Origin: Cantharellus purpuraceus
Taxonomy: Eukaryota; Basidiomycota; Agaricomycetes; Cantharellales; Hydnaceae
Assembly: GCA_025174535.1 (NCBI GenBank)
Contig: JALBUN010000042.1
Span: forward strand, 1 to 48,707
Reading direction: 5' to 3'
Length of the DNA stretch: 48,707 nucleotides
Shown: piece after piece, positions 4,368 through 25,171 of the stretch
Layout: every line of letters starts with the position of its first letter
Position numbering within the stretch: position 1 is the first letter of the stretch
Notes under the pieces: generated by a model
What the model saw: the letters and a program-made list of their open reading frames with translations, nothing else
What the model was told of the DNA's origin: nothing
Database searches by the model: none
Made by a program: the position numbers and the translations under genes

Positions 4368-5129
4368 TGTTATGATTATATTCATTAATGCCCAGATCCC
4401 TGTCTAATCCACTCAGATCCCCATGCACATGAAATCTATACTCCATTTGGAAACCATCACATCTCCATTTAGTCTGTCCAATCATCACTATTGACCTCAC
4501 TCATCCACCTCCAGTTCTGATTGATGCATCAGCATCACCATAGGAACCCAGACATCCATCCCTGTTGGACTCAGACATATTCATGTAAGGCTGTTGGCCT
4601 TGGAGACCCATCACCAGAGTAACTATTATTAGATTTCAAATATGTATTTAAGTTGTGTGACTGGGGACTTCATTCCCCAGTTTAAATATCAAATCACACC
4701 TAGCTCCTAAGTCCAATCCAAACTATCTAAGTCATACTCCATCTCTGAAATCTTGGGCACTGGTATTAGTGAGGGTGCAGCACATAAGCTGAAGCCAAGT
4801 CTGTTCTGACCCCCACAACACACTCTGATCACCACTCTGACTCTGACCCCTGACTCCAATCCAAGTTCTGACCCCCCAATTGGATCTAGTGCATAACAGT
4901 ATATTTGAACTGCCATACTCACTCCTACCTCAATGCCATGATCCACTGCCAATTCCAAATGTGCACAAACTGTTGAGTTGCCTGCTCCCAGCATCAACAC
5001 CATCTCTTAAGTTGTCAAAGAACCAATGGGCCATATAGAGGCTGTCAATGAAGAAGATGATACTCCACCCTCCCTGAATCTGGTGCAAGCCATCTCCCTG
5101 CTCACCAGCAGCATCTGTACCTCACAAGC
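4368..5129 (+). mobile_element. Truncated old copy of the chromodomain gypsy element (LTR + leader + gag start)
   Basis: 4368-4898 aligns along its length with the 515-bp LTR at 7291-7805 (same TGTTATGA start and GTGCATAACA end). It continues through the leader and the first part of gag, ending at about 5129 where similarity stops inside gag. Compared with the intact copy, nearly every CpG has become TpG or CpA (for example CCGTCGGACTTGGACATA against CTGTTGGACTCAGACATA). The ATG followed two codons later by TGA at the presumed gag start is shared with the longer copy. It is an inactive relic. Confidence 0.85.
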
Positions 5130-6787: not shown

Positions 6788-7290
6788 ATGAATACTCTAG
6801 TGTTCTCTTCAATTGAGGAAATGACTCACCTATGGTTCATGGACTCAGCCACATCCAGCTATATATGTGAAAACAGATGGATGTTCAAGACAATGTATAC
6901 GGTCTCTACCCTCATGATTGAGACTGCAAGTGGAGAATCTTTCACTGCCAACAAACAAGGAACCATTGATATTACTATTCATTCAGACAAAGTGGATGAT
7001 GTACCAGTGACCCTGCATGACATCATATATGTCTCAAAACTCAATGTAAACTTATTATAGCAAATGCAAATGTGAATGTATCTTTTACCAAAGATTGCTT
7101 CTATCTGTCCATAGAACACTATAATTGCACAGGGTTCAAAAGTCAACAATCTATTTGCATTCCATGCTACAATGGAACCCACTCACAAACAAGTCCATTC
7201 CTCTATGGAACCATCAGAGGCGACCCTTTGGCACCACCGATTTGCACATGTAAGTTATTCTACGATTGACAAAATGTTGAAGGGCAATAC
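6788..7290 (+). pseudogene. Copia element 1: protease and GAG-pre-integrase part, interrupted by gypsy
   Basis: The frame at 6788-7060 has the aspartic-protease region of copia polyproteins: MDSATSS in place of the usual D-S/T-G triad (G to A), then LHDIIYVSKLNVNLL. After a TAG at 7058-7060 a frame at 7172 on shows LWHHRFAHVSYSTIDKMLKGN, the GAG-pre-integrase H-x-R-x-x-H-x-S signature. The reading frame is cut at 7290 by the gypsy 5' LTR and resumes exactly at 16259 (KGN | TVIS). The AATAC at 7286-7290 is the duplicated target site. Confidence 0.85.
7286..7290. repeat. Target-site duplication AATAC (left copy)
   Basis: AATAC directly precedes the 5' LTR and recurs at 16254-16258 directly after the 3' LTR, as expected for Ty3/gypsy integration (5 bp). 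Confidence 0.95.
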
Positions 7291-7805
7291 TGTTATGACT
7301 ATATTCATTAACGCCCAGATCCCCGTCCGATCCCCTCAGATCCCCATGCACATGAAATCTATACTCCATTTGGAAACTGCCACGTCTCCATTTACCTATC
7401 CGATTGTCACCACCAATTCCGCCCATCCGTCTCTGGTTCCAATTGATGCATCAGCATCACCATAGGAACCCAGACATCCGTCCCCGTCGGACTTGGACAT
7501 ACTCATGTAAGGCCGTCGGCCTTGGAGACCCATCACTGGAGTAATTATTATTAGATTTCAAATATGTATTTAAGTTGCCCGACTGGGGACTTCATTCCCC
7601 AGTTCGAATATCAAATCACGCCTAGCTCCTAAGTCCGATCCTAACTCTCTAAGTCGTACTCCGTCTCCGAAGTCTCGGACACTGGTATTAGTGAGGGCGC
7701 AGCACATAAGCTGAAGCCAAGTCCGTTCCAACCCCCACGACATACTCCGACTCCGACCTGACCTCTGATCCAATCTCCAACCCCAATCGGACCTAGTGCG
7801 TAACA
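7291..7805 (+). repeat. Gypsy 5' LTR (515 bp)
   Basis: Starts TG, ends CA. Same length as the 3' LTR. Contains a TATGTATTTAAG stretch near 7563-7574 that could serve as a TATA element. Differences from the 3' LTR are almost all C/T or G/A at CpG. Confidence 0.95.
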
Positions 7806-7837
7806 GTATATTCGAACTGCCATACTCACTCCTACCA

Positions 7838-8928
7838 ATGCCATGATCCATTGCCAATTCCGAACGCACCCAAATCGTCAAGGTACCCGCCCCCAGCATC
7901 GACACCATCCCCGAGGTCGTTGAAGAACCGACGGACCACATAGAGGCCGTCAATGAAGAAGACGACACCCCGCCCTCTCCAAATCTGGTGCAAGCCATCT
8001 CCCTGCTTGCTAGCAGCATCCGTAACCCACAAGCCCCTAAGTCCCAGACCAAGGTCTGAGAACCTGACCCATTCGATGGCTCTGATCCGCGCAAGCTCCA
8101 GCCATTCTTGGTGCAATGCCAGTTGAATTTCCACGATCGCCCCGACGCATTCACATCCGATCGGGCGAAGGTTACCTTCGCCATGTCCTATCTCAAGGGC
8201 ACCGCACTGGACTACTTTGAGCCAGCGCTCATGGACGACTCTGATGACCCGATATGGTCAGAGGACTACTCCAACTTCATCTCCGAGCTTCGGACCAATT
8301 TCGGTCCGTACAACCCCGAAGCTGATGCCGAGAATGAACTTGATCGACTTCAGATGAAGGAAAATCACAAAATCGCAAAATACATTGTGAGTTTCCAGCA
8401 GCTAGCTCCAAAAGTCCAATGGGGCGACACCGCACTCCGACGCCAATTTTACGTTGGACTCCCATCCCGCATCAAGGACAAGATATCACGCATCGGTAAG
8501 CCGGATAGTTTGGCTACCCTTCGCAAGCTTGCCCAATCCATCGACACCTGTTATTGGGAACGTCAATCTGAGGTCTCCCACGAAAATTCGGCTAACAACA
8601 AATCGGACAAATCATCGGACAAAACTCCAAAGTCCAACAAGGGGTCCGATAAGCAAACACTGGTAACGCTGCCGCTTCCGGTTCTGGTCAGAACAACTCC
8701 GGCACCAGCAATAACTCCAGAGCTCGCAAGAGTACTCTGGACCTCTCCACCAAGCTGGGAAAGGACGGGAAACTTACCCAGCAGGAACGCCAGCACCGCA
8801 TGGACAACAACCTCTGTCTGTTCTGCGGGAAGCCTGGTCACCAAGCCAAGGATTGCAACAAGGCAACCTCGTCCGCAGCAAAGGCAAAGGGCCGCGCCGC
8901 CAATGCCACGATGGACCAAAAAAAATAG
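7838..8928 (+). pseudogene. Gypsy Gag (capsid + CCHC knuckle), interrupted
   Basis: The Gag frame runs from the first ATG (7838) but meets TGA at once (7844-7846) and again at 8057-8059, just before EPDPFDGSDPRKL. Both fit an original CGA (Arg). The Retrotrans_gag core follows (VTFAMSYLKGTALDYFEP, FGPYNPEADAENELDRL, RRQFYVGLPSRIKDKI). A one-base shift near 8655-8662 moves the downstream part to another frame, where the nucleocapsid knuckle LCLFCGKPGHQAKDCNK (CX2CX4HX4C, intact) lies at about 8812-8865. The frame ends at TAG 8926-8928, immediately after a run of eight A. Gag would package the RNA. The TGA at codon 3 is also in the 4.4-kb relic, so true initiation may differ. Confidence 0.85.
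8919..8928 (+). promoter_or_regulatory. Putative -1 ribosomal frameshift site between gag and pol
   Basis: In Gag frame the end reads CAA AAA AAA TAG. The heptamer A-AAA-AAA (8919-8925) is a canonical X-XXY-YYZ slippery site followed directly by the stop. A slip of one base back reads ATA GTA AGC and enters the pol frame, which is open to 9213. Known retroelements use this arrangement to set the Gag:Pol ratio. I did not establish a downstream pseudoknot. Confidence 0.6.
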
Positions 8929-10193
8929 TAAGCAGTCCTATAGCCTCCGTACAGGCTGAGGGCTGCATTGGTACTCCCCATATGACAGACGAGGTCCGCC
9001 TGAATGCATCCGCTCTTTCCCACTCCGACTCCCTTACCCTCCTTGTCCACTCCAACTCCATTCCCGATGCCACTATTCAAGCATTAATTGACTCCGGTTC
9101 TACTCACTGTTTCCTCGATTCCTCTTTTTCCAATTTACATAAACTCCATACATACACCATAACTCCGATACCACTCCGATTATTTGATGGCACTACTAAT
9201 GCTGTTATTTCATGAGCTATAGATCTGTCTATCTGTTTTTCTGTTGGAGAAATCCAGACCCTTACATTCTATGTTACTCCGCTTGACTCCAGCTGTTCTG
9301 TGGTTCTCGGCCATAACTGGCTCACCCGCTACAATCCATTGATTGACTGGGCATTGGGCCATATCACATTCCGTTCTCCAGTACAGGCTGTGTCATCCCC
9401 GACGTCACCAGCAAATATAGGTGTGAAATTATCTTCTGCCTCCGCTGACCCCGCTCTGATAGATACTCCGTCTACCCCTCTGTTTATATCGATGGTGGAC
9501 GCTATGGTCTTCGCCAGACTAAGCAAGCTGGACGGTTCTCACACATTCCAGGTCCACCTCTCTGACCCAATATTCCTTGCCGCTCGTTCTGCCCGATCCA
9601 CTCCACCGGACCTCTCTATGGTTCCCAAGGAGTATCATGAGTTCGCTGACGTGTTCAGCAAGTCTAAAGCTGACTCTCTAGCAGAACACTGACCATATGA
9701 TCTCAAGATCGAACTGGATGACAACTCCACCTCTCCGCTTGGCCCTATCTACTCGCTATCACAAAAAGAGCTACTGGCTCTCTGGACATTCATAGACGAG
9801 AACTTGGCCACGGGCTTCATCCGCCCATCCCTATCTCCTCATGGAGCTCCGGTCCTATTTGTCCGCAAAAAGGATGGATCACTCCGTCTATGCATCAACT
9901 TCCGTGGGCTCAACAAGATCACCAAGGAAGACCAATACCCCATACCCCGCACTGCAGACCTACTCGAGAGTCCTCGAAAGGCTAAGATCTACTCCAAAAT
10001 AGATCTCCGACACGCCTACCATCTAGTCCACATCCGAGAAGGCGATGAATGGAAAACGACCTTCCGCACACGATATGGATCTTTCGAGTGGTGTGTCATG
10101 CCCTTCGGACTAACCAATGCTCCGGCCGCCTTCCAGAGGTTCATGAATGATACCTTCGCCGACCTCCTCGATGTGACCGTCCTCATTTACTTA

Positions 10194-10758
10194 GACGCTT
10201 GTTCAGAAATACAACAAATATGTATGTACAACCTATTTTCCTCAAATTTTATACAATACACTTCAATTCAAACTTATTTTCATATTTCAACATGATTCTC
10301 AAATTTTACACAATATACTAGATTAAAACATATTTTGATATTTTGGCATAATTCTCAAAAATAATTGTTTTTTCCCCATTTAGTGGTGGCAACTCCCTTG
10401 AGGGAACATCCAAATATCATTGATTCTTTCTTATACAATACTTGTAACATAATTTGAACTATCTTTAATCCCCACCTGGTATTTGTATATCTAAATACCC
10501 TATATAATACCAATTATATTCATATATACATTCCTATTATATCCATGTAAATAATTATGTTCATCTCAACCAAATATCTTATCTTTTAAAGTTTATTAAA
10601 ATATAGAATATATGTTTATATTTATGAAAATTTCACACATCCAAAATCTTTTAAGATATCCAAATTGTAACTCCCTGGCTTTATGTATCATTGAAATCCT
10701 GATGTATATCTCCTATACATCAGAATATTGTATACTGACATGATTCCGAACAAGTGTC
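10194..10758. mobile_element. MITE-like element 1, inserted in the RT YLDD codons
   Basis: 565-bp AT-rich non-coding insertion. It begins GACGCTTGTTCAGAA and ends TTCCGAACAAGTGTC, 15-bp terminal inverted repeats with two mismatches. A 3-bp duplication TTA flanks it (10191-10193, 10759-10761). Removing the element and one TTA restores the RT frame through the catalytic Tyr-Leu-Asp-Asp. Near its right end it has an internal hairpin (CTGATGTATA / TATACATCAG). No transposase; the superfamily is unclear (3-bp TTA would suit PIF/Harbinger, but the sister element has TAT). Confidence 0.85.
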
Positions 10759-11215
10759 TTAGACGACATTCTGGTATATTCGGACAACGAAGAAGAACAT
10801 CGGACACATGTCCGAGAGGTACTCCAACGTCTCCGAAAGCATGGCCTCTTCGCCCGCTGACAAATGCGAATTTCACTCCGACTCGGTCAAATACCTAGGC
10901 TATATCCTCTCCCCGGCAGGATTAACAATGTCCGACGACAAAATCAAAGCCATACAGGAATGGCCAGAACCCCAGAAAGTCAAGGACATACAGTCCTTCC
11001 TTGGGTTCGCCAACTTCTACTGCTGCTTTATTCACGGCTACTCTGATATCACTGTTCCGCTCACCCGACTCACTAGGAAGGGTATCCAATGGAATTTCAC
11101 TGATGAATGTAGACAGAGTTTTGAGACCTTGAAAAAGGCCTTTACTTCCGCTCCGATACTGACTCATTGGGTTCCAGATGTTCCCATCCTTTTATAGACC
11201 GACACCTCCAACTAT

Positions 11216-11776
11216 GACGCTTATTCAGAAATACAACAAATACGTATGTACAACCTATTTTCCTCAAATTTTATACAATACACTTCAATTCAAACTTATT
11301 TTCATATTTCAACATGATTCTCAAATTTTACACAATATACTAGATTAAAACATATTTTGATATTTTGGCATAATTCTCAAAAATAATTCTTTTTTTCCTG
11401 ATTTAGTGGTGGCAACTCTCTTGAAGGAACATCCAAATATCATTGATTCTTTCTTATACAATACTTGTAACATAATTTGAACTATCTTTACACCTGGTAT
11501 TTGTATATCTAAATACCCTATATAATACCAATTATATTCATATATACATTCCTATTATGTACATGTAAATGATTATGTTCATCTCAACCAAATGTCTTAT
11601 CTTTAAAAGTTTATTAAAATATAGAATATATGTTTATATTTATGAAAATTTCACACATCCGAAATCTTTTAAGATATCCAAATTGTAACTCCCTGGCTTT
11701 ATGTATCATTGAAATTCTGATGTATATCTCATATACATCAGAATATTGTATACTGACATGATTCCGAACAAGCGTC
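11216..11776. mobile_element. MITE-like element 2, inserted at the start of RNase H
   Basis: 561 bp, nearly identical to element 1 in the same orientation, with termini GACGCTTATTCAGAA and TTCCGAACAAGCGTC. TAT is duplicated (11213-11215, 11777-11779). Excision of the element plus one TAT rejoins SNY to ALAVILS in frame, just behind the first RNase H aspartate. The two elements are 457 bp apart and could be independent insertions of one active family. Confidence 0.85.
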
Positions 11777-13738
11777 TATGCACTTGCCGTGATCCTGTCC
11801 ATCATTTCTCCAGACAACGGACAAGTCCACCCGATCGCTTTTCACTCGCGTACATTTATGCCCCCCGAACTGAACTATGACGTCCATGACAAAGAGCTCC
11901 TTGCCATATATGAAGCCTTCCGGATATGGAGACACTACCTTGAAGGTCCCTCCGACCCGGTGGATGTCATAACAGACCACAAGAACTTGGAATACTTCTC
12001 CACAATGAAACTGCTCACCCGGAGACAGGTCCGATGGTCCGAATACCTATCTCAGTTCAATCTCATTATCTGTTTCCATCCAGGTCGACTCGGAGCAAAG
12101 CCTGACGTGCTAACTAGACGCTGGGATGTCTACCCTAAAGAGGGGAATAGCGACTATGCCACTGTAAACCCCCACAACTTTCGTCCTGTGTTTACTAACG
12201 AGCAGCTGGCATCGTCCCTATGAGCATCCACCCTCATGACTCCCACTCTCCGAGCTGTCACCATTATGGACATCAACCAACTCCATTCCGACATCCGCTC
12301 ATCGCTCCGATCCGATCCTGTTGTGGTTAAACACTTGGACAACCCTTCTGATCCAAAATGGTCACTTGACCCCAAAGGACACCTCCGACACAACAACCGG
12401 ATATACGTCCCCAACGCCAACGGCCTCCGACTCTGAGTTTTGCAGTATTATCATGATCACCCGATCTCCAGCCACTTCGGGCAAAATCGCACACAAGGAT
12501 TAATCTGACGAGACTATGTATGGCCAAAAATGTGGGAATACATTCAACACTACTGTAACTCCTGCACCATGTGTATGTGCTCAAAATCGCAAAGGCACAA
12601 ACCCTACGGAACACTCAAACAACTTCCGATCCTGGAGCAACCATGGAACTCCATCTCCATGGACTTCATAGAGAAGCTCCCCCCATTGCTTGGATATGAC
12701 ACCATACTTGTGATTGTCGACAGGTTCGCCAAACAGTCACTATTCATTCTGACGCATGACACCATCACCTCCGCCTCGCTAGCTAAATTGTTCGTTCTCC
12801 ACGTGTTCTCTAAACATGGAGTCCCGTCGCATGTCACGTCTGATCGGGGTTCGGAGTTCGTGTCCTCCTTCTTCCACACATTAGGAAAGGCTCTCGACAT
12901 GAAGCTCCATTTCACCTCTGGATACCACCCTGAAGGAGACGGACAAACAGAACAAATGAATCAGTCACTGGAACAATATCTCTGAATCTATTGTAACTAT
13001 CAACAAGACAACTGGGCTGATCTACTTCTGATCGCAGAGTTTGCCTACAACAACGCTCCAAATGCGACTACCGGCATCTCTCCGTTCTTTGCTAATAAAG
13101 GCTACCATCCGAACATCTCCGTCCACCCCAAGAAAGAACTTGCCTCCACCAAAGCCTGCCAATTCGTAACCGACCTCGATCAACTACACCAACATCTCCG
13201 AGAGACCATCTCCGATGCCCAGAAACAATATCAAGTCTCCGCAGACCGACGCCGCATCCCGGCTCCAGACCTGCAAATCGGAGACAAAGTATTTGTTAAG
13301 GCCGAACACTTCCGGACCACCCGTCCATCGAAGAAACTCTCTGAGAAATACTTAGGTCCTTATGAGGTCATTGCTCGCGTGGGCAGCAGGTCTTTCACCC
13401 TCTGCCTCCCAGACCACTTCCGAGCAGTTCATCCGGTCTTCCATATATCAATGCTCAAACCTGCTACCACGAACGAGATCTCCGGTCGCACGCAACCTCC
13501 ACCTCCCCCGATCATCATCGAAGGAGATAATGAATATGAGATATCCGAGATCCTGGACTCGAAGATCGACCGTCGATACAAGTGCAAGCTCCAGTACTTA
13601 GTCAAATGGACTGGGTACGAAGGCATCAATGAAGAGCCTTCATGGATCTCCGCATCCAAACTCGATCATGCATCCGAATCCGTCTCCGATTTTCACTCTG
13701 CTTATCCAGACAAACCTGGCCCTCTTATGAATCTTTAA

Positions 13739-13887
13739 GTTCCATTACTAATGCTAATTCTACTATTTTGCATCACCATTTTATTACAAGTCAAGGGAAA
13801 TTACCAGCCTGCTCAAAAAGCTCCGAAGGAATCACTCCGCCTCATTCTTTCTCTGTTCCGAAATTTATAATCATTTTCATTTTTATT
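13739..13887. other. Spacer between pol stop and antisense ORF 3' end
   Basis: About 150 bp, T-rich on the plus strand in its second half. It would carry the 3' ends of both convergent transcripts. No clear terminator motif was assigned. Confidence 0.4.
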
Positions 13888-15621
13888 TTATACATTGCGT
13901 TTCCTTTTCCCCTTTCCCTTATCTACCTCAGGCTCCGTCTCCGACTCCTCATCACTCTCTACATCCGACACCCAATCCTTCTCATCTCCCATGTCCGAAT
14001 CCTCGTCCAACGGGGCTGTGAATTTCCGCAACCGACGTAACTTGGCTGTCTGACGACCCTCCAGAACCTCCTTCCGTTTCATCGTCCTCACCAAGTCTAC
14101 CAACAACCCCTCCGTCCGCCGAAGGTGCTCCAACTGTAGGTTAACCAGCCGGATAAGCTGGCCCACAGTGCTATTGGGCGCCAAAATGTGCCCCGTACCT
14201 GCACCGGTCATCGCCCCTTCCGATCCAATGCCACTACCCCCGGCTGCCACAGCACCCGTCTCCATCCGCCTCTTTTTGGTCGGACGACCCTCCGATTCCT
14301 TCTCCGCCCCTCCTTGTACCACTAATCGGGGCTTGACGCTCTGACTCTGGGGATCGAACTTCCCACTGATCCTACACTCTCCTTTCCAACCCCGACAACG
14401 ATCGCAGGACTGAAGTCGGCGAGTCGGGCTGGTAGGCCACACGCACTCCACACCCGCATCACGACATAAGTCGCAAGTTACGCCGGGTCCGCCAAATGGC
14501 TCCGTTGGAGCCAGAGCCTTGGGTGGTCTGCCCCTTCTCGCTGCGGCCTCCAAGCGTTCCCTCTTCTCCTTGTCCTGCTGTTCTGCTGCCGCCTTCTCCA
14601 TCTCACGCCTCCGAAGCTGGATCGCTGACCTTGCAACACACAGCTCCTTCTTACGGGTCGCCAACACGCGACTCTCTGCCTTGCACCATATGACCCTCCG
14701 ATCTGCCTCTCGCTTCTCTGTATCAGCACTCAGGTACGCCTTCAGGGAAAAGACCGCGACGTCGAGGTTCTTCTTAGTGGTAGCGGCATAGAGCTCCACT
14801 CTTTTGCAAGCCTCAACCGCAGCTACCCAAGCCATCTCCTCATAAGAATTCGAAGTAGGATCCGGCTCCGCATCCGTCCCAACATCCATGCCCACCTTGG
14901 GCTCCGCAGTTGCATCGAGCTCCACATTGGCATTGGGATCCGCTTCCACCTCCGCCCTCTCTGTCTCTGCCGCATCATCTTCCTCAGCTGCCCCTAACTC
15001 AAATAAGGGCCGTGCCCGCGGACGTAATGGCGAGTCCTCCACAGTGACAATCCTCGAACGAGTCGCCTCCATCCGTGTAACGGAGATGATGGTGACTTCC
15101 GGGGTCCCTGTCCATATTGGCACACTCGGACTTCCTGGGTGGCTGGTTTCCCCTGCCCCGGTCACCTCCTCTACCTCCATGGCCGCCTCTAACTCGTGCG
15201 CCTGCTCCTCCACTTCTTTCAGTCTCACAGCCTCCATCGCTGCCACAAGTTCCTTCACCATGCGGGCCCTCTCGGCCTTTGCTTCCTCCTCCTTCCGTCT
15301 CCGTTCCGCCTCCTCCTCCTCCTTCCATCTCTGTTCTGTCTCCTCCTCCTCCTTCCGTCTCTGTTCCATCTCCTCCTCCTCCTTCCGTCTCCGTGCTGCC
15401 TCCTCCTCCTCCTTCCGTCTCTGTTCTGCCTCCTCCTTTTCCTCCTTCCATCTCCGTTCCACCTCCTCCTCCTCCTTCTGTCTCCATTCTGCTTCCTCCT
15501 CCTCTTTCCGTTTCCGCTCCTCTTCCTCTTCCTTCCGTTGGGCCAAGAGCAACTGCTCCAGCTCGGCCACACTCATGCTTGCCAAAGGGTTTGACATCGT
15601 TGAGGATAAGACCTCAATCAT
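13888..15621 (-). CDS. Antisense accessory protein of the gypsy element: coiled coil, AT-hook, Zn2Cys6-like cluster
   Basis: A 577-codon frame, uninterrupted and opposite to gag-pol, fills the space between pol and the 3' LTR. Residues ~20-125: E/K/R-rich heptad-like repeats (EEEAERRRKEEE), a predicted coiled coil encoded by a ~30-bp DNA repeat. Residues ~230-270 acidic. Residues ~359-367: RRGRPPKAL, an AT-hook core. Residues ~383-416: six cysteines spaced CX2CX6CX12CX2CX6C, the Gal4-type zinc-cluster spacing. ~449: PTKKRRM, NLS-like. C-terminus: acidic stretch ending KGKGKRKRNV. A TATAAAAGG box lies 7-17 nt before the first ATG, so Met9 (MSNPLASMS) is a likelier start than Met1. It looks like a nuclear DNA-binding protein. 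Function unknown; regulation of the element or host is inference. Confidence 0.8.
   Translation of the reverse strand: MIEVLSSTMSNPLASMSVAELEQLLLAQRKEEEEERKRKEEEEAEWRQKEEEEVERRWKEEKEEAEQRRKEEEEAARRRKEEEEMEQRRKEEEETEQRWKEEEEAERRRKEEEAKAERARMVKELVAAMEAVRLKEVEEQAHELEAAMEVEEVTGAGETSHPGSPSVPIWTGTPEVTIISVTRMEATRSRIVTVEDSPLRPRARPLFELGAAEEDDAAETERAEVEADPNANVELDATAEPKVGMDVGTDAEPDPTSNSYEEMAWVAAVEACKRVELYAATTKKNLDVAVFSLKAYLSADTEKREADRRVIWCKAESRVLATRKKELCVARSAIQLRRREMEKAAAEQQDKEKRERLEAAARRGRPPKALAPTEPFGGPGVTCDLCRDAGVECVWPTSPTRRLQSCDRCRGWKGECRISGKFDPQSQSVKPRLVVQGGAEKESEGRPTKKRRMETGAVAAGGSGIGSEGAMTGAGTGHILAPNSTVGQLIRLVNLQLEHLRRTEGLLVDLVRTMKRKEVLEGRQTAKLRRLRKFTAPLDEDSDMGDEKDWVSDVESDEESETEPEVDKGKGKRKRNV
15289..15515. 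repeat. ~30-bp tandem repeat array encoding the coiled coil
   Basis: Units of the type CTCCTCCTCCTTCCGTCTCC (plus strand) recur about eight times with drift. On the minus strand they encode E/K/R repeats. The array is in frame in the antisense ORF and would expand or contract in multiples of ten codons. Confidence 0.75.
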
Positions 15622-15627
15622 GCCCCT

Positions 15628-15638
15628 CCTTTTATATG
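15628..15638 (-). promoter_or_regulatory. TATA box of the antisense ORF
   Basis: On the minus strand the sequence reads CATATAAAAGG just upstream of the antisense ORF. It lies in internal sequence next to the 3' LTR, so the antisense gene appears to have its own core promoter. With a usual 25-35 nt offset, transcription would begin between the first and second ATG. Confidence 0.5.
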
Positions 15639-15738
15639 TCTCCAGACCCCCAGTATAACTCCGACCACACCCAATCGTCTCACCTATTCAATCCATGGAC
15701 ATGAGGCCTCAGGGGCTCGGCCTTAAATGGAGAGATAC

Positions 15739-16253
15739 TGTTATGACTATATTCATTAACGCCCAGATCCCTGTCCGATCCCCTCAGATCCCCACGCACA
15801 TGAAATCTATACTCCATTTGGAAACCGCCATGTCTCCATTTACCTATCCGATTGTCACCGCCGATTCCACCCATCCGTCTCCGGTTCCAATTGATGCATC
15901 AGCATCACCATAGGAACCCGGACATCCGTCCCCGTCGGACTTGGACATACTCATGTAAGGCTGTCGGCCTTGGAGACCCATCACCAGAGTAATTATTATT
16001 AGATTTCAAATATGTATTTAAGTTGCCCGACTGGGGACTTCATTCCCCAGTTCGAATATCGAATCACGCCTAGCTCCTAAGTCCAATCCTAACTCTCTAA
16101 GTCATACTCCGTCTCCAAAGTCTCGGACACTGGTATTAGTGAGGGGAGAGCACATAAGCTGAAGCCAAGTCCGTTCCGACCCCCACGACATACTCCGACT
16201 CCGACCTGACCTCCGATCCAATCTCCGACCCCAATCAGACCTAGTGCATAACA
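15739..16253 (+). repeat. Gypsy 3' LTR (515 bp)
   Basis: TGTTATGACT...GTGCATAACA, the same length as the 5' LTR. It is preceded by a short purine-rich stretch (AAATGGAGAGA, 15725-15735) that could be the polypurine tract, and followed by the target duplication AATAC (16254-16258). Confidence 0.95.
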
Positions 16254-16258
16254 AATAC

Positions 16259-18285
16259 TGTCATCAGCCTACCTGCAAAGATCAACCTCAATCAAATCAG
16301 TCAATGTACCAACTGCCCATATGGAAAGCAAGTGCATACACCATTCCAGAATGTAGAAGAAATCCCCAAGGACACAGGCAATATAATCACATCGGATCTC
16401 TGTGGTCCCTTCAAACCATCCATCAGAGGATACAGATACTTGTATCAATCTCAAGATCAGATATGTTAGCATTGAATTTTTGAAGAACAAGGAGTGTAGG
16501 ACAGTCACTGATTTGTTCAAGCGCTATCTAGCATGGATCATGAGGCAAAAAGGTGCACATGTTAAGAGAATAAGGACTGACAATGGTGGTGAATATACTG
16601 GACATGAATTCCAAGAGTTATGCAGTGAGCTGGGAATAACACATGAAACTACTTCACTGTATACTCCAGAGCACAACGGGATTGCTGAAAGATACAATAG
16701 AACACTTCAAGAAGGCTCGCTCACCCTTTTGCATGACTCCAGTCTGCCCAACAAATTTTGGGTGTCAGCAATCCATATGGTGAACTTCATCAAAAACCGC
16801 CTACTTCACAGTCATATCAATATGTCCCTGCATGAAGCCTTCTGGGGAAACAGGCCCAGAATAGATTGGCTAAGGATGTATGGTGCAAAGTGCCTGGCCC
16901 TCATACTGAAACCTATCAGAAGAAAGGGCAACTTCAGATCAGTGGAAGGAATATTCATCGGGTACTTTGATAACTCAAAGTCATACAAGATATGGATCCT
17001 GTGCACCCATACCATTGTGAAGGCTCGCAATGTCATATTTGATGAAGTAGATCACATTGAATGGAATGTGGATGTCCTCCCAGACCTCTGGAGAAAGGAC
17101 ATACTGATTCAAATCAATTCTATTGAAGCACTAACGCCTGCCACCCAATGGACTGAGGACCATGAGCTTCCCTTCATCCCTAGAGAGGTAGGAGTTGAGG
17201 AAGAGGCTGGGATCAAAGGAGTGGATGGAGATGGAGGAGCAAGGGAAGACGGAATGGCTGGTGGAGGAGTGAGGGAAGAAGGAACCACCAAAGAAGAAGG
17301 AGAACCAGAGGAAGAAGAAACATATGCACCCAAGGACTTCAAGTGGGGCACCTGGCTCGGCCTGTCCAACATTACCTATGGACAGGGAAAACGAATCAAG
17401 GCCTATATTCCAAGATATCAGCTTTTTCAAACAGTATAATCTATTTGGAACAAACCAAACAAGCTTTCCTTACACTCGCTGAGGATGAGCTGGCCAACTA
17501 TGCAGATGCAATGAAATCCATCGATACTTCTGAATGGAGAAGAGCCTATGAAACAGAATATGGAACCTGGTGAGTTACAAAATGTGGACACTCATTGAGA
17601 AACCGACTCACACAAACATAGTTGGCAGCAGATGGTTTTTTTGCATCAAAAGGGATAATATGGGCAACCTTGATAAATGAAAGGCCAGATTCATCGTGCA
17701 AGGCTTCTCTCACATCCCAGGCATTGATTTCAATGAGACATATTTCCCTACCATCTGATTCACATCCATATGACTCATATTTGCACTTGCCATCCAGTAT
17801 GGCCTTGAGCTGCATCAAATTGACATTAAGGGGACATACCTGAATGGTGCACTTGAGGAGACTGTTTACATGAAACAGCCCAAAGAATTTGTTGTAAAAG
17901 GGAAGGAACATCTCATTTGCAAGCTGAATAAGGGTATCTACAGCCTCAAGCAGTCTGGACAAGTCTGGTACCAGACACTAAAAGAGAAGTTGGTGAAACT
18001 TGGTTTCAAACCTGGAGAGGCTGATGGAACCATCTACTTTTAAAACAAGGAACTGGGATCCATTGAGATAGCTGGCTGGTATGTAGATGATGGGCTACTG
18101 GCAACAAACATGAAGGAGGCAATGGAGGGACTTGTTGAGGATATTAGCGACACATTTGATATCCAAGACCCGGGTGAGCCAACGTGTTTATTAGGCATTA
18201 AAATCCACAGGGATCAAACTGATGGGACACTACATATATCCCAACCTGCATTTATTGATACAATGGCCAAATGCGGGGTTAGGGT
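16259..18285 (+). pseudogene. Copia element 1: integrase and reverse transcriptase, 3' end lost
   Basis: Continues the pol frame cut at 7290. Integrase: CTNCPYGKQ zinc site, catalytic SDLCGPF, RTDNGGEYTG and PEHNGIAERYNRTL (D, D, E all present), with a frameshift near 16455. An acidic linker (~17185-17330) follows. RT: WRRAYETEY, ELHQIDIKGTYLNG, IYSLKQSGQVWYQTL and YVDDG, with stops at 17571, 17757 and 18041. The sequence ends inside RT at MAKCGVR, where the left arm of the large inverted repeat starts (18286). RNase H and the 3' LTR are absent here and to the right of the inverted repeat. Inactive. Confidence 0.85.
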
Positions 18286-19038
18286 TTTGACTCAAGGCAT
18301 CAAATCAAAGAGGCGTGACGGACCTTGTCGTGGAGCCCATTGAGACGAAGCGTGAATGCCTTGATGTGGTGAAGCTCATCCATTACAATCCATTCCTTCA
18401 TCGTAACGACGATGAAAGCTTCCAAAGGGCGGTGCTGTGAACCCATCAATACGCTATCCCGCAGAAAGTTGAGGTATCCTCCACGAGGATCGCAAATGAC
18501 TGCTACCTGCTCTGGCATCGGCTGAACCCCGCACAGGTGATGCGCATGATACGAGTTTACGGCACCTCGTATTCTTTCCATGAGCAGTGCCATCTGTCCC
18601 ATGCTTTAAGAGAATGTCTTGGGTCTTTAGAGTCGCTCTCAAATTGTCTGCTGCCTTGGAGAATAATTCGATTGATGCCAGGGTATCCGCGAGTATCAGA
18701 TGCTATAGTCCTAGAGCACGGTGAGCGGCATGCCTCTCCCCAAGTATACTGCCCCAGGAGTGGCCATAGAGATCATAGTCATCCCGGACCCTGAAATGAG
18801 CCAGAACAGTATCCAGTTCGTACAGGAACATATCGTGGTTTCGGAATGTCACGTCACCATTTTTCTCTGGAAGATGTGTGGAGTTGCCTTTTCTTGCGCC
18901 ATAAAGGATGGTGGGTATAGAGCGTGTTCCACAAGAGAACAGAGATAGTGCCAATTGGGCCTGGACAATGATCTGGTAGCTCAGCCGCAAGCCACGATAA
19001 TAGTGACCAGCTGGCCATACACATAGTCTGTATTTCAC
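18286..19038 (-). pseudogene. Proline iminopeptidase-like pseudogene, left-arm copy (3' truncated)
   Basis: Mirror copy of the pseudogene at 25172-26011 (see there). It carries the same GHSWG nucleophile motif, the same stop after AHRALGL and the same frameshifts. It ends at the arm border 18286, so the last part of the alpha/beta-hydrolase domain present on the right is absent here. Confidence 0.75.
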
Positions 19039-19848
19039 CCGCCAGTCAAGGAGTCCTCTAGCCTAGCCTATGGTCAGCCAACCCAAGTCTACTAGGAGTT
19101 GGAACAAAGTGCAGCTCAGTGGGCTTGAAGTGTGATATACATCCTCTTTGCCTTCCCTCAAGGATCCTTCATGACTGGTTGTACTGCAGAGTCAGCTCTT
19201 ACACCCAATGGTCATGGTCATAAGTTGGCCGCCTCGTAAGTTTGGTAATTGCTTCCGCGTTATGTTACACTATGGGTGCCATGGTCATTGTGGGATATCG
19301 GGGTCAGTGGGTCCTTGAACCAGTCAGCAGACAGACCTTTCTCAAGGCAAGGTATCATGCCCCATAAATGAGCTAAGCTTTCTGCTCGTCTCAGCGAACG
19401 CGCCAAGCGGCTTGTTACGCCACCAAGTGGGTTACAAAATTGTTACTGACACTTGTAAAATTTTCTAGTGGAACAGATCTTCCGTCAAATGGCGGCGTTC
19501 TGCTGGCGCAGGAGAGTGTTCCAAAGTCCCTGGCGCGGGTTTTGCAAGCTGAACGGGTGAGGGGGTCGTAAAGAGAGAAGCGGGTCCGGCTAGAGGTGAG
19601 GATGGCAGACAATCAAAATGTCGCAAGAAAGATGGCAAAGTACAGAAACCCGCAGGAATCAAGGTGTGTTATGAAGTGCTCTGTTTCCTCCCCGTTCATG
19701 AGCATGACTTTCCCTGAATGGTTATAACAGCACGGTGAAAGCCTTGCCAAATATAACTGGTGAGTGGGCTGATCGACGTTGAGGGACCACAGCTGGAAGT
19801 GTCAAGCAGGAGAGTGGAAGACGAGATGCACATTCCGATCCCGAGGCC

Positions 19849-20202
19849 ATGCGCATGTCTCGTAACACTAACGAACGAGCTCTAAACTGTGAGAAAGCTG
19901 CCAAGGTCGCCAGCGCTGCCAAAAATGCTTCTGCCAAATCCCACCCTGCCACACCCAATCCGGCACCCACTACTTCTGTTCCCGCACCTGCACCTGCACG
20001 AAAAACAGAGTTTGAAAGAAGAGCACCCACAACACGGTTAAATGATATCGTTCAGGTGCCACCTAATTTAACAAAACTCCCTTGTGGGGCCGCAAAACGA
20101 ACTGCGCAGGAAGGAGGTGCGGTCGTGTCTAAGACGAACGGGGTAATATCAATGGCTCAAAAGCAAATAATGGAAGAAGAGAGGGAGCGAGCGATTCAAT
20201 GA
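19849..20202 (+). CDS. Hypothetical Ala/Lys-rich protein, left-arm copy
   Basis: 117 codons from ATG, identical to the right-arm frame 24008-24361. The N-terminus is rich in Ala, Lys and Asn (EKAAKVASAAKNASAK), then a Pro-rich linker, then NDIVQVPPNLTKLPCG and GVISMAQKQIMEEERERAIQ, a charged helix. After TGA the frame continues YGELKERTTAA, as if a CGA codon became TGA and removed the C-terminus. Upstream (~19480-19665) a lysine-rich open stretch may be an earlier exon. I do not recognise a named family; similar tails occur in uncharacterised basidiomycete proteins, from memory and unchecked. Confidence 0.45.
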   Translation: MRMSRNTNERALNCEKAAKVASAAKNASAKSHPATPNPAPTTSVPAPAPARKTEFERRAPTTRLNDIVQVPPNLTKLPCGAAKRTAQEGGAVVSKTNGVISMAQKQIMEEERERAIQ

Positions 20203-21854
20203 TATGGAGAACTCAAGGAGCGCACAACTGCAGCCTGATAGAAGAGAGGATTCGTAGGCTAGCTGAGGCCTATCACTCTTGCAACTCCTATCATGTATCC
20301 AGAAAGTGGGTCACATTTGTCATGTCTTGCTCCTTATAAATTCACCACCGTCGTAGCTCTATTGAGGATCTTATAATATAGATGGATGGTTTCAGATCAA
20401 ATCACTGAGTTGACTAACTGACCAAGGGTCAACTCTACTCCACGCATATCATGCAGCGCTGTCTTTGCAACATAATTCAAATGTAGTGGAAACAGCATTC
20501 ATACATTGTCGTCAAGATGTGTTAAATACCCTGTCTGTAATACTTTAGAGGTATCGGGACCGAGACAGTTTTCCCAAAACAGCTGAGAAGAATATCAAAC
20601 CCTGCTGCAGCACAACTCCAGAAACAATTTAATGTTTGTACTTTGGTTACAATCCTTTGTATTGGTCAATGCAGACTATATGCAGAAAGGTAATACATTT
20701 CTTAGCCACAAGAAATGAATAAGACTTCCAGAGTCTAGAGTTCATGGACACTTAGGGATCCAGATATTCCAAAAAGAGGGGAATGCACTTAGAGGCTAAA
20801 GGAAGTAGGTGGATGAATCCAACCGTCCAACCAGTGGCACTCAGAAGCGGGTAACAGCAATGTGTGAAGTAGTCTAGCAACTGCTTCACACAAGTTCAAG
20901 CTTCTAATGCTCTGCAAAGGCAGTACACACTAGCAACTTAAACAAGAGCACTAATGGCAGGACTATCGACAGACAATCTCACCCTGTAGATTTGTAGTCA
21001 CATGAGGCAGATACTACACTCACGCCCAAAGCAGGAATATCACTACTTTGAGTGCAATCAAGTACAGTTACACAACTGTAAAAGATCCTTGAACTGGTAA
21101 TCAACAGTTACTGAGATAGAGGATGACACTGTATGTCACTCTAGTCACACTGGTATGCAAAAGATGGGTAGAATAGGTTTTATATGTTAGAGGCAGAATG
21201 ACCTCCTTATATATTGTATTTACAGAAGCTGACTAATGGTTCTGGAATATTCTACCTATTAATAGATGGAAACTACTGGAAGATTGTGGAAGGTGGAAAA
21301 AAGGGGTAGAATATTCCAAACCAATCACAGGTTCTGATCACTGGACTAACACTGATTAGGAGCTGAATAATGATTCTGGAATGTTCTATCTAATAATAGA
21401 GGGAAACAGCTAGAATGTTATGGAAAGGGGTAGAATATTCCAAGGCAATCACCTGATTACTGGTTTGCACAGCCATGGATAGCCACATCTCAGGTGATGA
21501 TCTTCATAGAAAATAGTGCCCTGAGAGGCTGTGGTTGTCAAGTTAGAGAATATTTATTGATCAGAGACATCTGAGCTTGAATTCAGGCCGAATGCCTGGT
21601 CCAAAGGGGGAGAGCTGGCTGCGCAAAGGTTTGTGGGTGCCTATGGGTCCACAACTGTAGCACAGCAGAAATAAATGATTCTGGGCCGAGTTCTGCATGG
21701 AATATTCCTGAAAAAAATATGGAAAAATAGAGAATATTTGAATGAGTCCATTCCAGGTACAAGCATCAAATATATGCTGATATTTATGAATGGAAAAGCA
21801 AAGAATAGCACATTGGTGCTGCATAAATAGGATTTGATAGGGAAAAGGTGGTTC
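20203..21854. other. AT-rich, LTR-like inner part of left arm
   Basis: Mirror of 22356-24007. It contains two imperfect ~130-bp repeats around GGAATATTCTA / TAGAATATTCC (about 21235-21460) and, on the minus strand, a TATATAAGG box. Its outer limit near 20525 reads TGTTAAATACC, which would suit an LTR terminus on this strand. It is probably a retroelement LTR or LTR-adjacent sequence, but the borders are uncertain. Confidence 0.35.
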
Positions 21855-22355
21855 TCATATAGCTTCAGCTATTTTGTTGTTCATATTATGCACAACACAT
21901 TTATTCCTTGTAAAGAGCACTGGCATGTTGTTGTCAGCTAGCTTTTCTACTGAGATGAGATGTAAGATGGCTTTGGACACAGAGCACATTCTTAAGAACC
22001 ATGTACCGTCCCTTCTTGATAGAGATTTTATATTTCTTACCCCTATAGCTGCAATAGATAACCTTTGATAGCCCATGGTTGAATATGGGTGAGTTTGAGA
22101 AAGTCTCTATAATATGGGGAGCATGATGAGATGGCCACCAAGTCTAAGTGATAAGAAACATCCCTGGTTACTGTTGCTGTGGTTTCCAAGAATGACATCA
22201 AGTAATCTTTGGTATCATCCAAGTGCTGATGCAGTGGTTTCTTTACTGGCATTTCACTATGTGCTACCATAGAGTAATCAGATTCATCATTTGATAATGC
22301 ATAGGTCACACAGGCCTGTGGGTGTGCTTTGGTGACATATGCTGATTCTGTATAG
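21855..22355 (-). pseudogene. Copia protease-region fragment forming the spacer of the inverted repeat
   Basis: Minus-strand frames read TESAYVTKAHPQACVTYAL, then SPYYRDFLKLTHIQPWAIKG and LISVEKLADNNMPVLFTRNK. This is the Gag C-terminus/protease segment of a copia polyprotein, with a frameshift near 22060. The protease D-S-G is not preserved. It is single-copy here, 501 bp, bounded on both sides by the arms. It is clearly different from copia element 1. Confidence 0.75.
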
Positions 22356-24007
22356 GAACCACCTTTTCCCTATCAAATCCTATTTATGCAGCACCAATGT
22401 GCTATTCTTTGCTTTTCCATTCATAAATATCAGCATATATTTGATGCTTGTACCTGGAATGGACTCATTCAAATATTCTCTATTTTTCCATATTTTTTTC
22501 AGGAATATTCCATGCAGAACTCGGCCCAGAATCATTTATTTCTGCTGTGCTACAGTTGTGGACCCATAGGCACCCACAAACCTTTGCGCAGCCAGCTCTC
22601 CCCCTTTGGACCAGGCATTCGGCCTGAATTCAAGCTCAGATGTCTCTGATCAATAAATATTCTCTAACTTGACAACCACAGCCTCTCAGGGCACTATTTT
22701 CTATGAAGATCATCACCTGAGATGTGGCTATCCATGGCTGTGCAAACCAGTAATCAGGTGATTGCCTTGGAATATTCTACCCCTTTCCATAACATTCTAG
22801 CTGTTTCCCTCTATTATTAGATAGAACATTCCAGAATCATTATTCAGCTCCTAATCAGTGTTAGTCCAGTGATCAGAACCTGTGATTGGTTTGGAATATT
22901 CTACCCCTTTTTTCCACCTTCCACAATCTTCCAGTAGTTTCCATCTATTAATAGGTAGAATATTCCAGAACCATTAGTCAGCTTCTGTAAATACAATATA
23001 TAAGGAGGTCATTCTGCCTCTAACATATAAAACCTATTCTACCCATCTTTTGCATACCAGTGTGACTAGAGTGACATACAGTGTCATCCTCTATCTCAGT
23101 AACTGTTGATTACCAGTTCAAGGATCTTTTACAGTTGTGTAACTGTACTTGATTGCACTCAAAGTAGTGATATTCCTGCTTTGGGCGTGAGTGTAGTATC
23201 TGCCTCATGTGACTACAAATCTACAGGGTGAGATTGTCTGTCGATAGTCCTGCCATTAGTGCTCTTGTTTAAGTTGCTAGTGTGTACTGCCTTTGCAGAG
23301 CATTAGAAGCTTGAACTTGTGTGAAGCAGTTGCTAGACTACTTCACACATTGCTGTTACCCGCTTCTGAGTGCCACTGGTTGGACGGTTGGATTCATCCA
23401 CCTACTTCCTTTAGCCTCTAAGTGCATTCCCCTCTTTTTGGAATATCTGGATCCCTAAGTGTCCATGAACTCTAGACTCTGGAAGTCTTATTCATTTCTT
23501 GTGGCTAAGAAATGTATTACCTTTCTGCATATAGTCTGCATTGACCAATACAAAGGATTGTAACCAAAGTACAAACATTAAATTGTTTCTGGAGTTGTGC
23601 TGCAGCAGGGTTTGATATTCTTCTCAGCTGTTTTGGGAAAACTGTCTCGGTCCCGATACCTCTAAAGTATTACAGACAGGGTATTTAACACATCTTGACG
23701 ACAATGTATGAATGCTGTTTCCACTACATTTGAATTATGTTGCAAAGACAGCGCTGCATGATATGCGTGGAGTAGAGTTGACCCTTGGTCAGTTAGTCAA
23801 CTCAGTGATTTGATCTGAAACCATCCATCTATATTATAAGATCCTCAATAGAGCTACGACGGTGGTGAATTTATAAGGAGCAAGACATGACAAATGTGAC
23901 CCACTTTCTGGATACATGATAGGAGTTGCAAGAGTGATAGGCCTCAGCTAGCCTACGAATCCTCTCTTCTATCAGGCTGCAGTTGTGCGCTCCTTGAGTT
24001 CTCCATA
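22356..24007. other. AT-rich, LTR-like inner part of right arm
   Basis: Mirror of 20203-21854. On this strand a TATATAAGG box lies near 22998, downstream of GAATATTCC-type repeats, and TATTTAACA at about 23683-23691 could be an LTR 3' end. No TG start was fixed with certainty. No coding function seen. Confidence 0.35.
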
Positions 24008-24361
24008 TCATTGAATCGCTCGCTCCCTCTCTTCTTCCATTATTTGCTTTTGAGCCATTGATATTACCCCGTTCGTCTTAGACACGACCGCACCTCCTTC
24101 CTGCGCAGTTCGTTTTGCGGCCCCACAAGGGAGTTTTGTTAAATTAGGTGGCACCTGAACGATATCATTTAACCGTGTTGTGGGTGCTCTTCTTTCAAAC
24201 TCTGTTTTTCGTGCAGGTGCAGGTGCGGGAACAGAAGTAGTGGGTGCCGGATTGGGTGTGGCAGGGTGGGATTTGGCAGAAGCATTTTTGGCAGCGCTGG
24301 CGACCTTGGCAGCTTTCTCACAGTTTAGAGCTCGTTCGTTAGTGTTACGAGACATGCGCAT
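24008..24361 (-). CDS. Hypothetical Ala/Lys-rich protein, right-arm copy
   Basis: Identical to the left-arm frame 19849-20202. Starts MRMSRNTNERALN, ends RERAIQ at TGA, with the frame open again behind the stop (YGELKERTT). Because the right arm appears parental, this would be the original gene. The premature TGA suggests it is damaged. Lysine-rich coding-like sequence upstream (about 24545-24740, minus) may be a first exon. Confidence 0.45.
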   Translation of the reverse strand: MRMSRNTNERALNCEKAAKVASAAKNASAKSHPATPNPAPTTSVPAPAPARKTEFERRAPTTRLNDIVQVPPNLTKLPCGAAKRTAQEGGAVVSKTNGVISMAQKQIMEEERERAIQ

Positions 24362-25171
24362 GGCCTCGGGATCGGAATGTGCATCTCGTCTTCCACTCTC
24401 CTGCTTGACACTTCCAGCTGTGGTCCCTCAACGTCGATCAGCCCACTCACCAGTTATATTTGGCAAGGCTTTCACCGTGCTGTTATAACCATTCAGGGAA
24501 AGTCATGCTCATGAACGGGGAGGAAACAGAGCACTTCATAACACACCTTGATTCCTGCGGGTTTCTGTACTTTGCCATCTTTCTTGCGACATTTTGATTG
24601 TCTGCCATCCTCACCTCTAGCCGGACCCGCTTCTCTCTTTACGACCCCCTCACCCGTTCAGCTTGCAAAACCCGCGCCAGGGACTTTGGAACACTCTCCT
24701 GCGCCAGCAGAACGCCGCCATTTGACGGAAGATCTGTTCCACTAGAAAATTTTACAAGTGTCAGTAACAATTTTGTAACCCACTTGGTGGCGTAACAAGC
24801 CGCTTGGCGCGTTCGCTGAGACGAGCAGAAAGCTTAGCTCATTTATGGGGCATGATACCTTGCCTTGAGAAAGGTCTGTCTGCTGACTGGTTCAAGGACC
24901 CACTGACCCCGATATCCCACAATGACCATGGCACCCATAGTGTAACATAACGCGGAAGCAATTACCAAACTTACGAGGCGGCCAACTTATGACCATGACC
25001 ATTGGGTGTAAGAGCTGACTCTGCAGTACAACCAGTCATGAAGGATCCTTGAGGGAAGGCAAAGAGGATGTATATCACACTTCAAGCCCACTGAGCTGCA
25101 CTTTGTTCCAACTCCTAGTAGACTTGGGTTGGCTGACCATAGGCTAGGCTAGAGGACTCCTTGACTGGCGG

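What the first reader, a model, noticed from the sequence alone, without database searches (positions are those of the whole stretch)
13888..15638. Intact 577-codon antisense gene inside a dead chromovirus: coiled coil + AT-hook + Zn2Cys6-like cluster with its own TATA box
The sense gag-pol of this element has at least eight stops, frameshifts and two insertions, yet the antisense frame over 1.7 kb has none. Its protein has DNA-binding marks (RRGRPPK; CX2CX6CX12CX2CX6C), two NLS-like clusters and a TATAAAAGG box placed for minus-strand transcription. Antisense accessory ORFs are known in some plant Ty3/gypsy elements. A Gal4-type cluster in such an ORF is not something I know described in fungi. 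It could silence, regulate or target the element, or act on host genes. Seen: the ORF, motifs and TATA. Inferred: function and selection.
Basis: partly seen in the sequence, partly recalled or inferred. Interest (0 to 1): 0.88.

Follow-up and report, generated by a model that had tools for sequence, protein, structure and literature searches.

The report
Antisense accessory gene in fungal retrotransposon
A very abundant fungal jumping element carries, on its opposite strand, a real gene kept working by natural selection that probably makes a nuclear DNA-binding protein with an oddly arranged zinc cluster; similar backwards genes are known in plant elements and in one grey-mould element, but this version looks new.

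Summary
The ORF is real: 577 codons, minus strand, 13888-15621. It does not overlap gag-pol. It fills a 2-kb segment between the end of a chromodomain pol (13738) and the 3' LTR (15739) of a chromovirus, 7291-16253, flanked by AATAC duplications. The genome holds at least 40 long copies, this one included; TATA box plus leader occur 400 times (up to 3 mismatches) against 0 control matches. The antisense frame was under purifying selection: with CpG sites masked, omega is 0.26 in frame and 2.2 in both shifted frames over 38 copies; the end of pol gives 0.08. The LTR shows no codon-position bias. The intact state of this copy is not special: 8 of 40 copies are fully open, and 30 of 40 stops are CGA-to-TGA decay. 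The AT-hook is rejected: 30 of 40 copies lack it. The six cysteines are near-invariant, but Pfam Zn_clus matches the half-clusters in swapped order, below cut-off. Such antisense genes are known (Grande, Retand, Botrytis brtn): a new variant of a known kind. Most likely a nuclear DNA-binding accessory protein; transcription, translation and binding are untested.

The parts
7291..16253 (+). Whole chromovirus (Ty3/gypsy, chromodomain pol), with 5-bp target duplications AATAC at 7286-7290 and 16254-16258
   Evidence: LTR self-match 95.7%; boundaries TGTTA...TAACA and AATAC flanks read
7291..7805 (+). 5' LTR
8108..8959 (+). gag remnant
   Evidence: Pfam Retrotrans_gag 1.8e-9
9804..10295 (+). reverse transcriptase fragment
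   Evidence: Pfam RVT_1 2.4e-23
10196..10757 (.). insertion inside pol, about 560 bp, absent from other copies aligned there (approximate limits)
11217..11772 (.). second, related insertion inside pol, absent from other copies aligned there (approximate limits)
11762..12223 (+). RNase H part of pol
   Evidence: Pfam RT_RNaseH 4.8e-27
12509..13738 (+). integrase, Tf2-1-type SH3 and chromodomain part of pol; pol terminator at 13736-13738
   Evidence: Pfam rve, SH3_Tf2-1, Chromo; stop shared by 21 of 21 rows
13888..15621 (-). antisense accessory ORF, 577 codons from the first ATG; likelier start Met9 at 15597
   Evidence: omega 0.257 in frame with CpG masked, 38 copies
15628..15636 (-). TATAAAAGG box of the antisense gene
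   Evidence: identical in 34 of 40 rows; box plus leader 400 times in the genome with up to 3 mismatches, control 0
15284..15533 (-). 30-bp tandem array coding a 10-residue E/K/R-rich coiled-coil-type repeat, variable in length between copies
14518..14538 (-). RRGRPPK, the claimed AT-hook (residues 362-368); glycine at residue 365 in 30 of 40 copies, so not a family feature
14374..14475 (-). six-cysteine zinc-cluster-like motif (residues 383-416), half-clusters in swapped order relative to Zn2Cys6
   Evidence: Cys kept in 40, 40, 40, 39, 40, 39 of 40 rows; Pfam Zn_clus partial matches in 20 of 32 copies, best stretch always in reversed order
14266..14277 (-). KKRR basic cluster (residues 449-452), NLS-like
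   Evidence: read; NLS reading is inference
14020..14169 (-). amphipathic helix after the zinc motif (residues about 485-534), possible dimerisation coil
   Evidence: helix in an otherwise poor single-sequence model, block pLDDT 72-88
13891..13920 (-). basic C-terminal tail KGKGKRKRNV, NLS-like
   Evidence: read; KGKGKRK invariant in 20 of 20 stop-free copies aligned
15739..16253 (+). 3' LTR

Best explanation
This is an accessory gene of the retrotransposon, coded on the strand opposite to gag-pol in the segment between pol and the 3' LTR. It is transcribed towards pol from its own TATA promoter just inside the 3' LTR. It makes a nuclear protein of about 570 residues: a long E/K/R-rich coiled coil, a six-cysteine zinc cluster built from the two halves of a Gal4-type Zn2Cys6 cluster in swapped order, and a second coil that may dimerise it. 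The protein most likely binds DNA or chromatin and regulates the element, acting on LTR transcription or on the choice or entry of the integration site. Shown: the gene structure, its presence across the family, its purifying selection while copies were active, the conserved cysteines and the conserved TATA. Inferred: transcription, translation, nuclear location, zinc binding, DNA binding and the regulatory role.
For: The frame is shared by 40 long copies, this one included, and all 124 protein-level matches that were scored, of 854 candidates, are 78-100% identical. Old, non-CpG variants (minor base in at least 3 copies) by codon position 1/2/3 are 11/357, 6/340 and 38/329 (38 copies, Fisher p 8e-9). 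CpG-masked ML omega is 0.257 in frame, 2.23 and 2.19 shifted (38 copies); 0.22 against 1.5 and 3.0 in 16 copies chosen as open. The masked pol control gives 0.083 and unmasked LTR frames 0.79-1.22. No sense frame of the segment is stop-free in any of 38 copies. TATAAAAGG is unchanged in 34 of 40 rows; 0 of 34 non-CpG sites from TATA to Met9 vary among old alleles. Cysteines are near-invariant. Zn_clus matches 20 of 32 natural copies, and in all 20 the best stretch fits the swapped order. Plant parallels have nuclear or predicted DNA-binding antisense products.
Against: No transcript or protein evidence is available. The Zn_clus score never reaches the Pfam cut-off of 21 bits (10.0-18.6 in the 20 matching copies, no match in 12 of 32). 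Three of the 12 non-matching copies instead give weak matches to VioE, a likely chance hit, and one matching copy scores slightly better for an IS91 zinc domain. The AT-hook fails. Structure prediction from one sequence is poor (mean pLDDT 57.5 and 53.4) and the longer model gives no fold match. CGG-type half-sites in the LTR are not convincing once all pentamers are considered. Selection on the gene is weaker than on the end of pol (omega 0.257 against 0.083).
Confidence: 0.6

Rival explanations
1. The RNA matters more than the protein: the convergent antisense transcript pairs with the gag-pol RNA and controls the element through double-stranded RNA, and the ORF is secondary.
For: The gene is convergent with pol, and a sense RNA ending in the 3' LTR would run through it (layout). 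The TATA is strongly conserved. The plant review names this possibility.
Against: Codon-position bias and omega below 1 in the ORF frame but not in its shifted frames need selection on the protein. The near-invariant cysteines, against hypermutated CpG arginines around them, are a protein pattern.
Confidence: 0.15
2. A structural or replication role in the particle or pre-integration complex (nucleic-acid chaperone, nuclear import) rather than a transcription-factor-like role.
For: Coiled coils and basic nuclear-type tails fit an adaptor. The review suggests pre-integration-complex transport for antisense products.
Against: An antisense mRNA is not the natural source of a particle protein (inference); the swapped Gal4-type halves point to DNA contact.
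Confidence: 0.2
3. Open by chance or by base composition, not a gene.
For: The E/K/R repeat is open in several frames because of its purine-rich strand. 32 of 40 copies are not fully open.
Against: Outside the repeat only this one frame is stop-free in any copy, and it alone has omega below 1 among the minus frames; LTR sites show no codon-position bias.
Confidence: 0.02
4. This one copy's ORF has been taken over by the host, which is why it is intact in a broken element.
For: The ORF is intact here while gag-pol is broken.
Against: 8 of 40 copies have the whole frame open and 22 of 38 are stop-free over residues 125-577. Substitutions private to this copy are 4 nonsynonymous and 1 synonymous, ratio 1.24, too few to show constraint.
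Confidence: 0.03

Closest known systems
brtn of Boty-like elements, Botrytis cinerea (Zhao et al. 2011; title seen in the reference list of PMC8365987, element named in PMC7264820; the paper itself is not held)
   Same: Antisense additional gene in a fungal element, placed between pol and the 3' LTR according to PMC7264820
   Different: Ascomycete; its sequence could not be compared; no zinc cluster was mentioned in the passages I saw
Retand antisense ORFs with TRP28 domain (plants; PMC11963269, abstract and passages)
   Same: Antisense ORFs between pol and 3' LTR, predicted DNA binding, SMC-type domains in some, tandem repeats in the region
   Different: Non-chromovirus plant elements; TRP28 (PF04195) was not found here; the word 'zinc' has 0 occurrences in that text
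Grande gene23 (maize; described in PMC7264820)
   Same: Antisense accessory gene with its own promoter, in the long 3' internal region; nuclear protein
   Different: Plant element; expression shown there, not here; no sequence link tested
Fungal Zn2Cys6 (Gal4-type) transcription factors, Pfam PF00172
   Same: CX2CX6CX12CX2CX6C spacing; each half resembles one half of the family; possible coil after the cluster
   Different: Halves in reverse order, score below cut-off; none of the genome's 42 Zn_clus matches lies at any of the 124 antisense-gene places
Antisense genes of deltaretroviruses such as HBZ and APH-2 (antisense HTLV products are mentioned; the name HBZ is recalled)
   Same: Nuclear regulatory protein from the minus strand, promoter at the 3' LTR side
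   Different: Comparison by analogy only; no homology tested

Membership tests
Antisense additional ORF between pol and 3' LTR (aORF-3R) | Lies between pol and the 3' LTR, opposite in sense to gag-pol | tested here: met
   pol stop 13738, ORF 13888-15621 minus, LTR 15739
Antisense additional ORF between pol and 3' LTR (aORF-3R) | Present in many copies of the family, with sequence constraint of the kind seen in pol | tested here: met
   40 long copies; omega 0.257, pol 0.083. Copies of the element without the ORF were not sought.
Antisense additional ORF between pol and 3' LTR (aORF-3R) | Transcribed from its own promoter | not testable with these tools
   Conserved TATA only; no RNA data
Zn2Cys6 binuclear cluster (PF00172) | Six cysteines with CX2CX6CX5-12CX2CX6-8C spacing (spacing rule recalled) | tested here: met
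   CX2CX6CX12CX2CX6C, cysteines in 39 or 40 of 40 rows
Zn2Cys6 binuclear cluster (PF00172) | Reaches the curated Pfam score (21 bits) | tested here: not met
   10.0-18.6 bits in 20 of 32 copies, no match in 12 of 32
Zn2Cys6 binuclear cluster (PF00172) | Basic half first, second half after | tested here: not met
   Best stretch: earlier half on profile 17-38 in 15 copies, later half on profile 1-14 in 5 copies, of 20 that match; two stretches in 11
AT-hook | Core RGRP (recalled) | tested here: not met
   Arginine at residue 365 in 10 of 40 copies only, CpG decay product
Chromovirus (host element) | Chromodomain at the integrase C-terminus, LTRs | tested here: met
   Pfam Chromo 1.9e-7; LTRs 7291-7805 and 15739-16253
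Retand TRP28 | PF04195 domain | tested here: not met
   No Pfam family at E up to 1 for the whole protein
brtn | Sequence homology to BRTN | not tested
   Sequence and paper not held

The most novel reading that the evidence does not exclude
A basidiomycete-type chromovirus has evolved its own antisense-coded transcription factor with a circularly swapped Gal4-type binuclear zinc cluster, the first such topology, which dimerises through flanking coils and binds CGG-type half-sites in its own LTRs to control hundreds of copies at once.
Probability: 0.2. Interest if true: 0.78.

Novelty: new variant of a known kind. Interest (0 to 1): 0.52.

Why it matters
Antisense genes at the 3' end of Ty3/gypsy elements have been seen in plants and in Botrytis, but their function is unknown. 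Here one is shown by its own copies to be under selection, in a fungus with hundreds of copies of its promoter sequence. It carries a recognisable, testable motif (six cysteines). If the swapped zinc cluster binds zinc and DNA, it would be an unusual topology of a large fungal DNA-binding family and would give a direct handle on what antisense retrotransposon genes do.

Tried and rejected
AT-hook as a family feature: rejected. In 12 further copies, read by eye, RGRP is in 3 of 12.

Host takeover of this copy: no support (8 of 40 copies fully open).

CGG half-sites in the LTR as binding sites: TCCGA on one strand is 7 against 1.2 expected, 0 of 500 shuffles. Over both strands it is 9 against 1.8, ratio 4.2, and the best pentamer of a shuffle averages 4.0. 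Density is 17.5 per kb in LTRs, 7.4 in gag-pol, 6.0 in the antisense-gene region and about 1.2-1.3 outside the element. Kept only as a weak lead.

Frame-preserving length changes of the repeat: 30 of 37 rows agree modulo 3 with this copy (itself included), but the unit is 30 bp, so this is not independent evidence.

Homologues elsewhere: two protein searches with the ORF gave nothing at E up to 1e-3, while the end of pol gave 3293 relatives of 3424 candidates, so fungal sequences are held. Both ORF searches hit the candidate limit, so distant relatives are not excluded. Viral contigs and genome contigs: none with the ORF; none with pol in viral contigs; five distant pol relatives (41-47%) in contigs of bacterial bins. 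In two of these (L051, L053) a gag-like frame, judged by eye, starts about 480 and 420 bp after pol, which leaves no room for such a gene; L049, L050 and L052 were not looked at. Structure models: poor; the second gave no Foldseek match in the PDB, the first was not searched. PDB by sequence: nothing relevant.

Literature: searches listed no zinc-cluster antisense retrotransposon gene and no circularly permuted binuclear zinc cluster, as far as titles, abstract starts and the passages I opened show. The library lacks most subscription papers, so this is not proof of absence. PMC5408684 (passages) describes additional ORFs in rotifer elements and showed nothing comparable. The species was not identified; the two named hits among the 120 pol hits listed are from Trametes and Amanita.
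Full report
WHAT IS THERE. The window holds a Ty3/gypsy element with both ends, 7291-16253, with LTRs at 7291-7805 and 15739-16253 (95.7% identical) and the 5-bp duplication AATAC on both sides. Sense remnants are gag (Retrotrans_gag), reverse transcriptase, RNase H, integrase, a Tf2-1-type SH3 domain and a chromodomain. It is therefore a chromovirus, broken into several frames and by two insertions of about 560 bp. Pol ends at 13738: this stop is shared by 21 of 21 rows compared. Between it and the 3' LTR lie 2 kb whose only constrained frame is on the minus strand: 13888-15621, 577 codons.

IS IT A GENE. The genome (40.15 Mb, 50 contigs) gave 42 DNA matches to the ORF, 40 of them long, this one included (a lower bound). 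A protein search with its C-terminal 323 residues scored 124 of 854 candidates, and all 124 matched at 78-100% identity; by my count of the printed rows 65 of 124 have no stop. I aligned this copy with 39 others (40 rows; L012 was left out because it is part of the same copy as L013). There are 40 stops in the 40 rows, 30 of them at codons 28, 304, 402 and 432. At each of these four the commonest codon is CGA, with TGA and CAA as the usual changes, which is CpG decay. Eight of 40 rows, this one included, have the entire frame open to the natural stop. Over residues 125-577, in the 38 copies that cover it, there are 19 stops in 17,170 codons in the ORF frame, against 666 in 17,175 and 714 in 17,177 in the shifted minus frames and 370, 227 and 481 in the sense frames; 22 of 38 copies are stop-free in the ORF frame and 0 of 38 in any other. 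The sense strand of this segment is not coding.

SELECTION. Most variation is CpG transition (338 of 478 polymorphic sites with both alleles in at least two rows), so I separated it. For variants with the minor base in at least three copies and outside CpG, positions 1/2/3 vary at 11/357, 6/340 and 38/329 sites (Fisher p 8e-9). Singletons show a weaker bias (45/357, 37/340, 56/329; p 0.02), as expected for decay after insertion. In the LTR (31 rows, some of them the two LTRs of one copy) the same test is flat (5/130, 7/133, 4/133; p 0.59), and in the last part of pol (21 rows) it is 0/202, 0/218, 17/198. Pairwise dN/dS is 0.39 pooled in frame, 0.72-0.80 in the shifted minus frames, and 0.92, 0.86 and 0.51 in the sense frames (40 rows); the sense frame at 0.51 shares its third positions with the ORF and has 227 stops. 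All control values by this method are thus below 1, so the codon models matter more. Codon-model omega without masking is 0.62 in frame, 1.18 and 1.21 shifted, from 16 copies chosen because their C-terminal frame is open; pol 0.49 with 1.30 and 1.52 shifted; LTR 0.79-1.22 from 16 of the 31 rows. With every codon that touches a CpG in any copy masked: 0.22 in frame, 1.49 and 2.98 shifted in the 16 copies, and 0.257 in frame, 2.23 and 2.19 shifted in the 38 copies not chosen for openness. Pol masked is 0.083; the LTR was not run masked. The antisense protein was therefore under purifying selection while the family was active, though less strictly than the end of pol.

PROMOTER. TATAAAAGG lies at 15628-15636 on the minus strand, ending 6 bp before the first ATG. 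It is unchanged in 34 of 40 rows; two rows have one change, three lack all or part of the box, and one has unrelated sequence there. From TATA to Met9, 0 of 34 non-CpG sites vary among old alleles; in the 84 bp upstream 2 of 69 do. The 32-base TATA-plus-leader sequence with up to 3 mismatches occurs 400 times in the genome, and 0 times when read backwards as a control. A start site about 30 bp downstream of TATA would fall after the first ATG, so Met9 or Met16 is the likelier start; this is inference.

PROTEIN. It has an E/K/R-rich 10-residue repeat (30-bp array), helices before and after a six-cysteine motif, basic clusters and an acidic-basic tail. Helices were predicted in single-sequence models of low overall confidence. 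The cysteines are kept in 40, 40, 40, 39, 40 and 39 of 40 rows, although arginine codons around them are heavily decayed; in 12 further copies read by eye, 10 of 12 keep all six. Against Pfam the whole protein gave no family at E up to 1. I then scanned the 56-residue piece around the motif from this copy and from the 31 other copies in which it is stop-free (8 first picked by hand, then the remaining 23). Zn_clus is matched in 20 of 32, at 10.0-18.6 bits against a cut-off of 21, and not matched in 12. In 15 of the 20 the best stretch is the earlier half on profile positions 17-38, the second half of the family; in the other 5 it is the later half on profile positions 1-14, the first half. Eleven of 20 have two stretches; the table prints only the best, so the place of the other is inferred. 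No best stretch has the canonical order. The halves are thus in reverse order to the canonical cluster, on weak but consistent scores. Chance-level matches to VioE (3 copies) and an IS91 zinc domain (1 copy) also appeared. None of 42 Zn_clus matches in the genome lies at an antisense-gene place. The AT-hook of this copy (RRGRPPK) fails: 30 of 40 rows have glycine at residue 365, and the 10 arginine codons all follow GGC, as CpG decay would produce.

HOW IT MOST LIKELY WORKS. The best reading is a nuclear DNA-binding accessory protein, made from an antisense transcript, that regulates the element's expression or its insertion. Plant counterparts support this class of reading: gene23 of Grande is nuclear and has its own promoter (PMC7264820, first two of three parts of the text read), and Retand antisense ORFs carry a predicted DNA-binding domain (PMC11963269, abstract and passages). 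The CGG-site idea for the LTR is weak. An effect of the antisense RNA itself may coexist.

KNOWN OR NEW. Antisense genes between pol and the 3' LTR are an established kind, in plants and, as brtn, in Botrytis (PMC7264820; reference title and passages in PMC8365987). Two distant pol relatives in eukaryote-like contigs of bacterial bins have no room for such a gene, which suggests that the gene belongs to a sublineage. What is new, as far as searches show, is the zinc cluster, its swapped halves, and a demonstration of selection from copies in a fungus. The database searches for homologues of the ORF were negative but limited, against a strong pol control.

Noticed in passing
18286-21869 and 22341-25924: Inverted repeat with arms of about 3.58 kb (at most 5 mismatches) and a 471-bp spacer: a large hairpin, or an assembly or recombination product.
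   Followed up: partly
16387-18343: Copia-type integrase (rve, SH3_retrovirus) next to the chromovirus, with further broken frames read.
   Followed up: partly
G000:C48:467083-467865: Four Zn_clus matches within 0.8 kb on one strand, possibly one gene with several zinc clusters.
   Followed up: no
L023 (144-1426): A second, more diverged partial copy of the antisense gene (80-84%) lies within 10 kb of a longer copy.
   Followed up: no
L049-L053: Ty3/gypsy pol sequences sit in contigs binned as Trichormus and Bacteroidetes, which points to eukaryotic contamination of these bins.
   Followed up: partly
4365-4664: A stretch 62% like the LTR lies 2.9 kb upstream of the element, perhaps an old solo LTR.
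   Followed up: no
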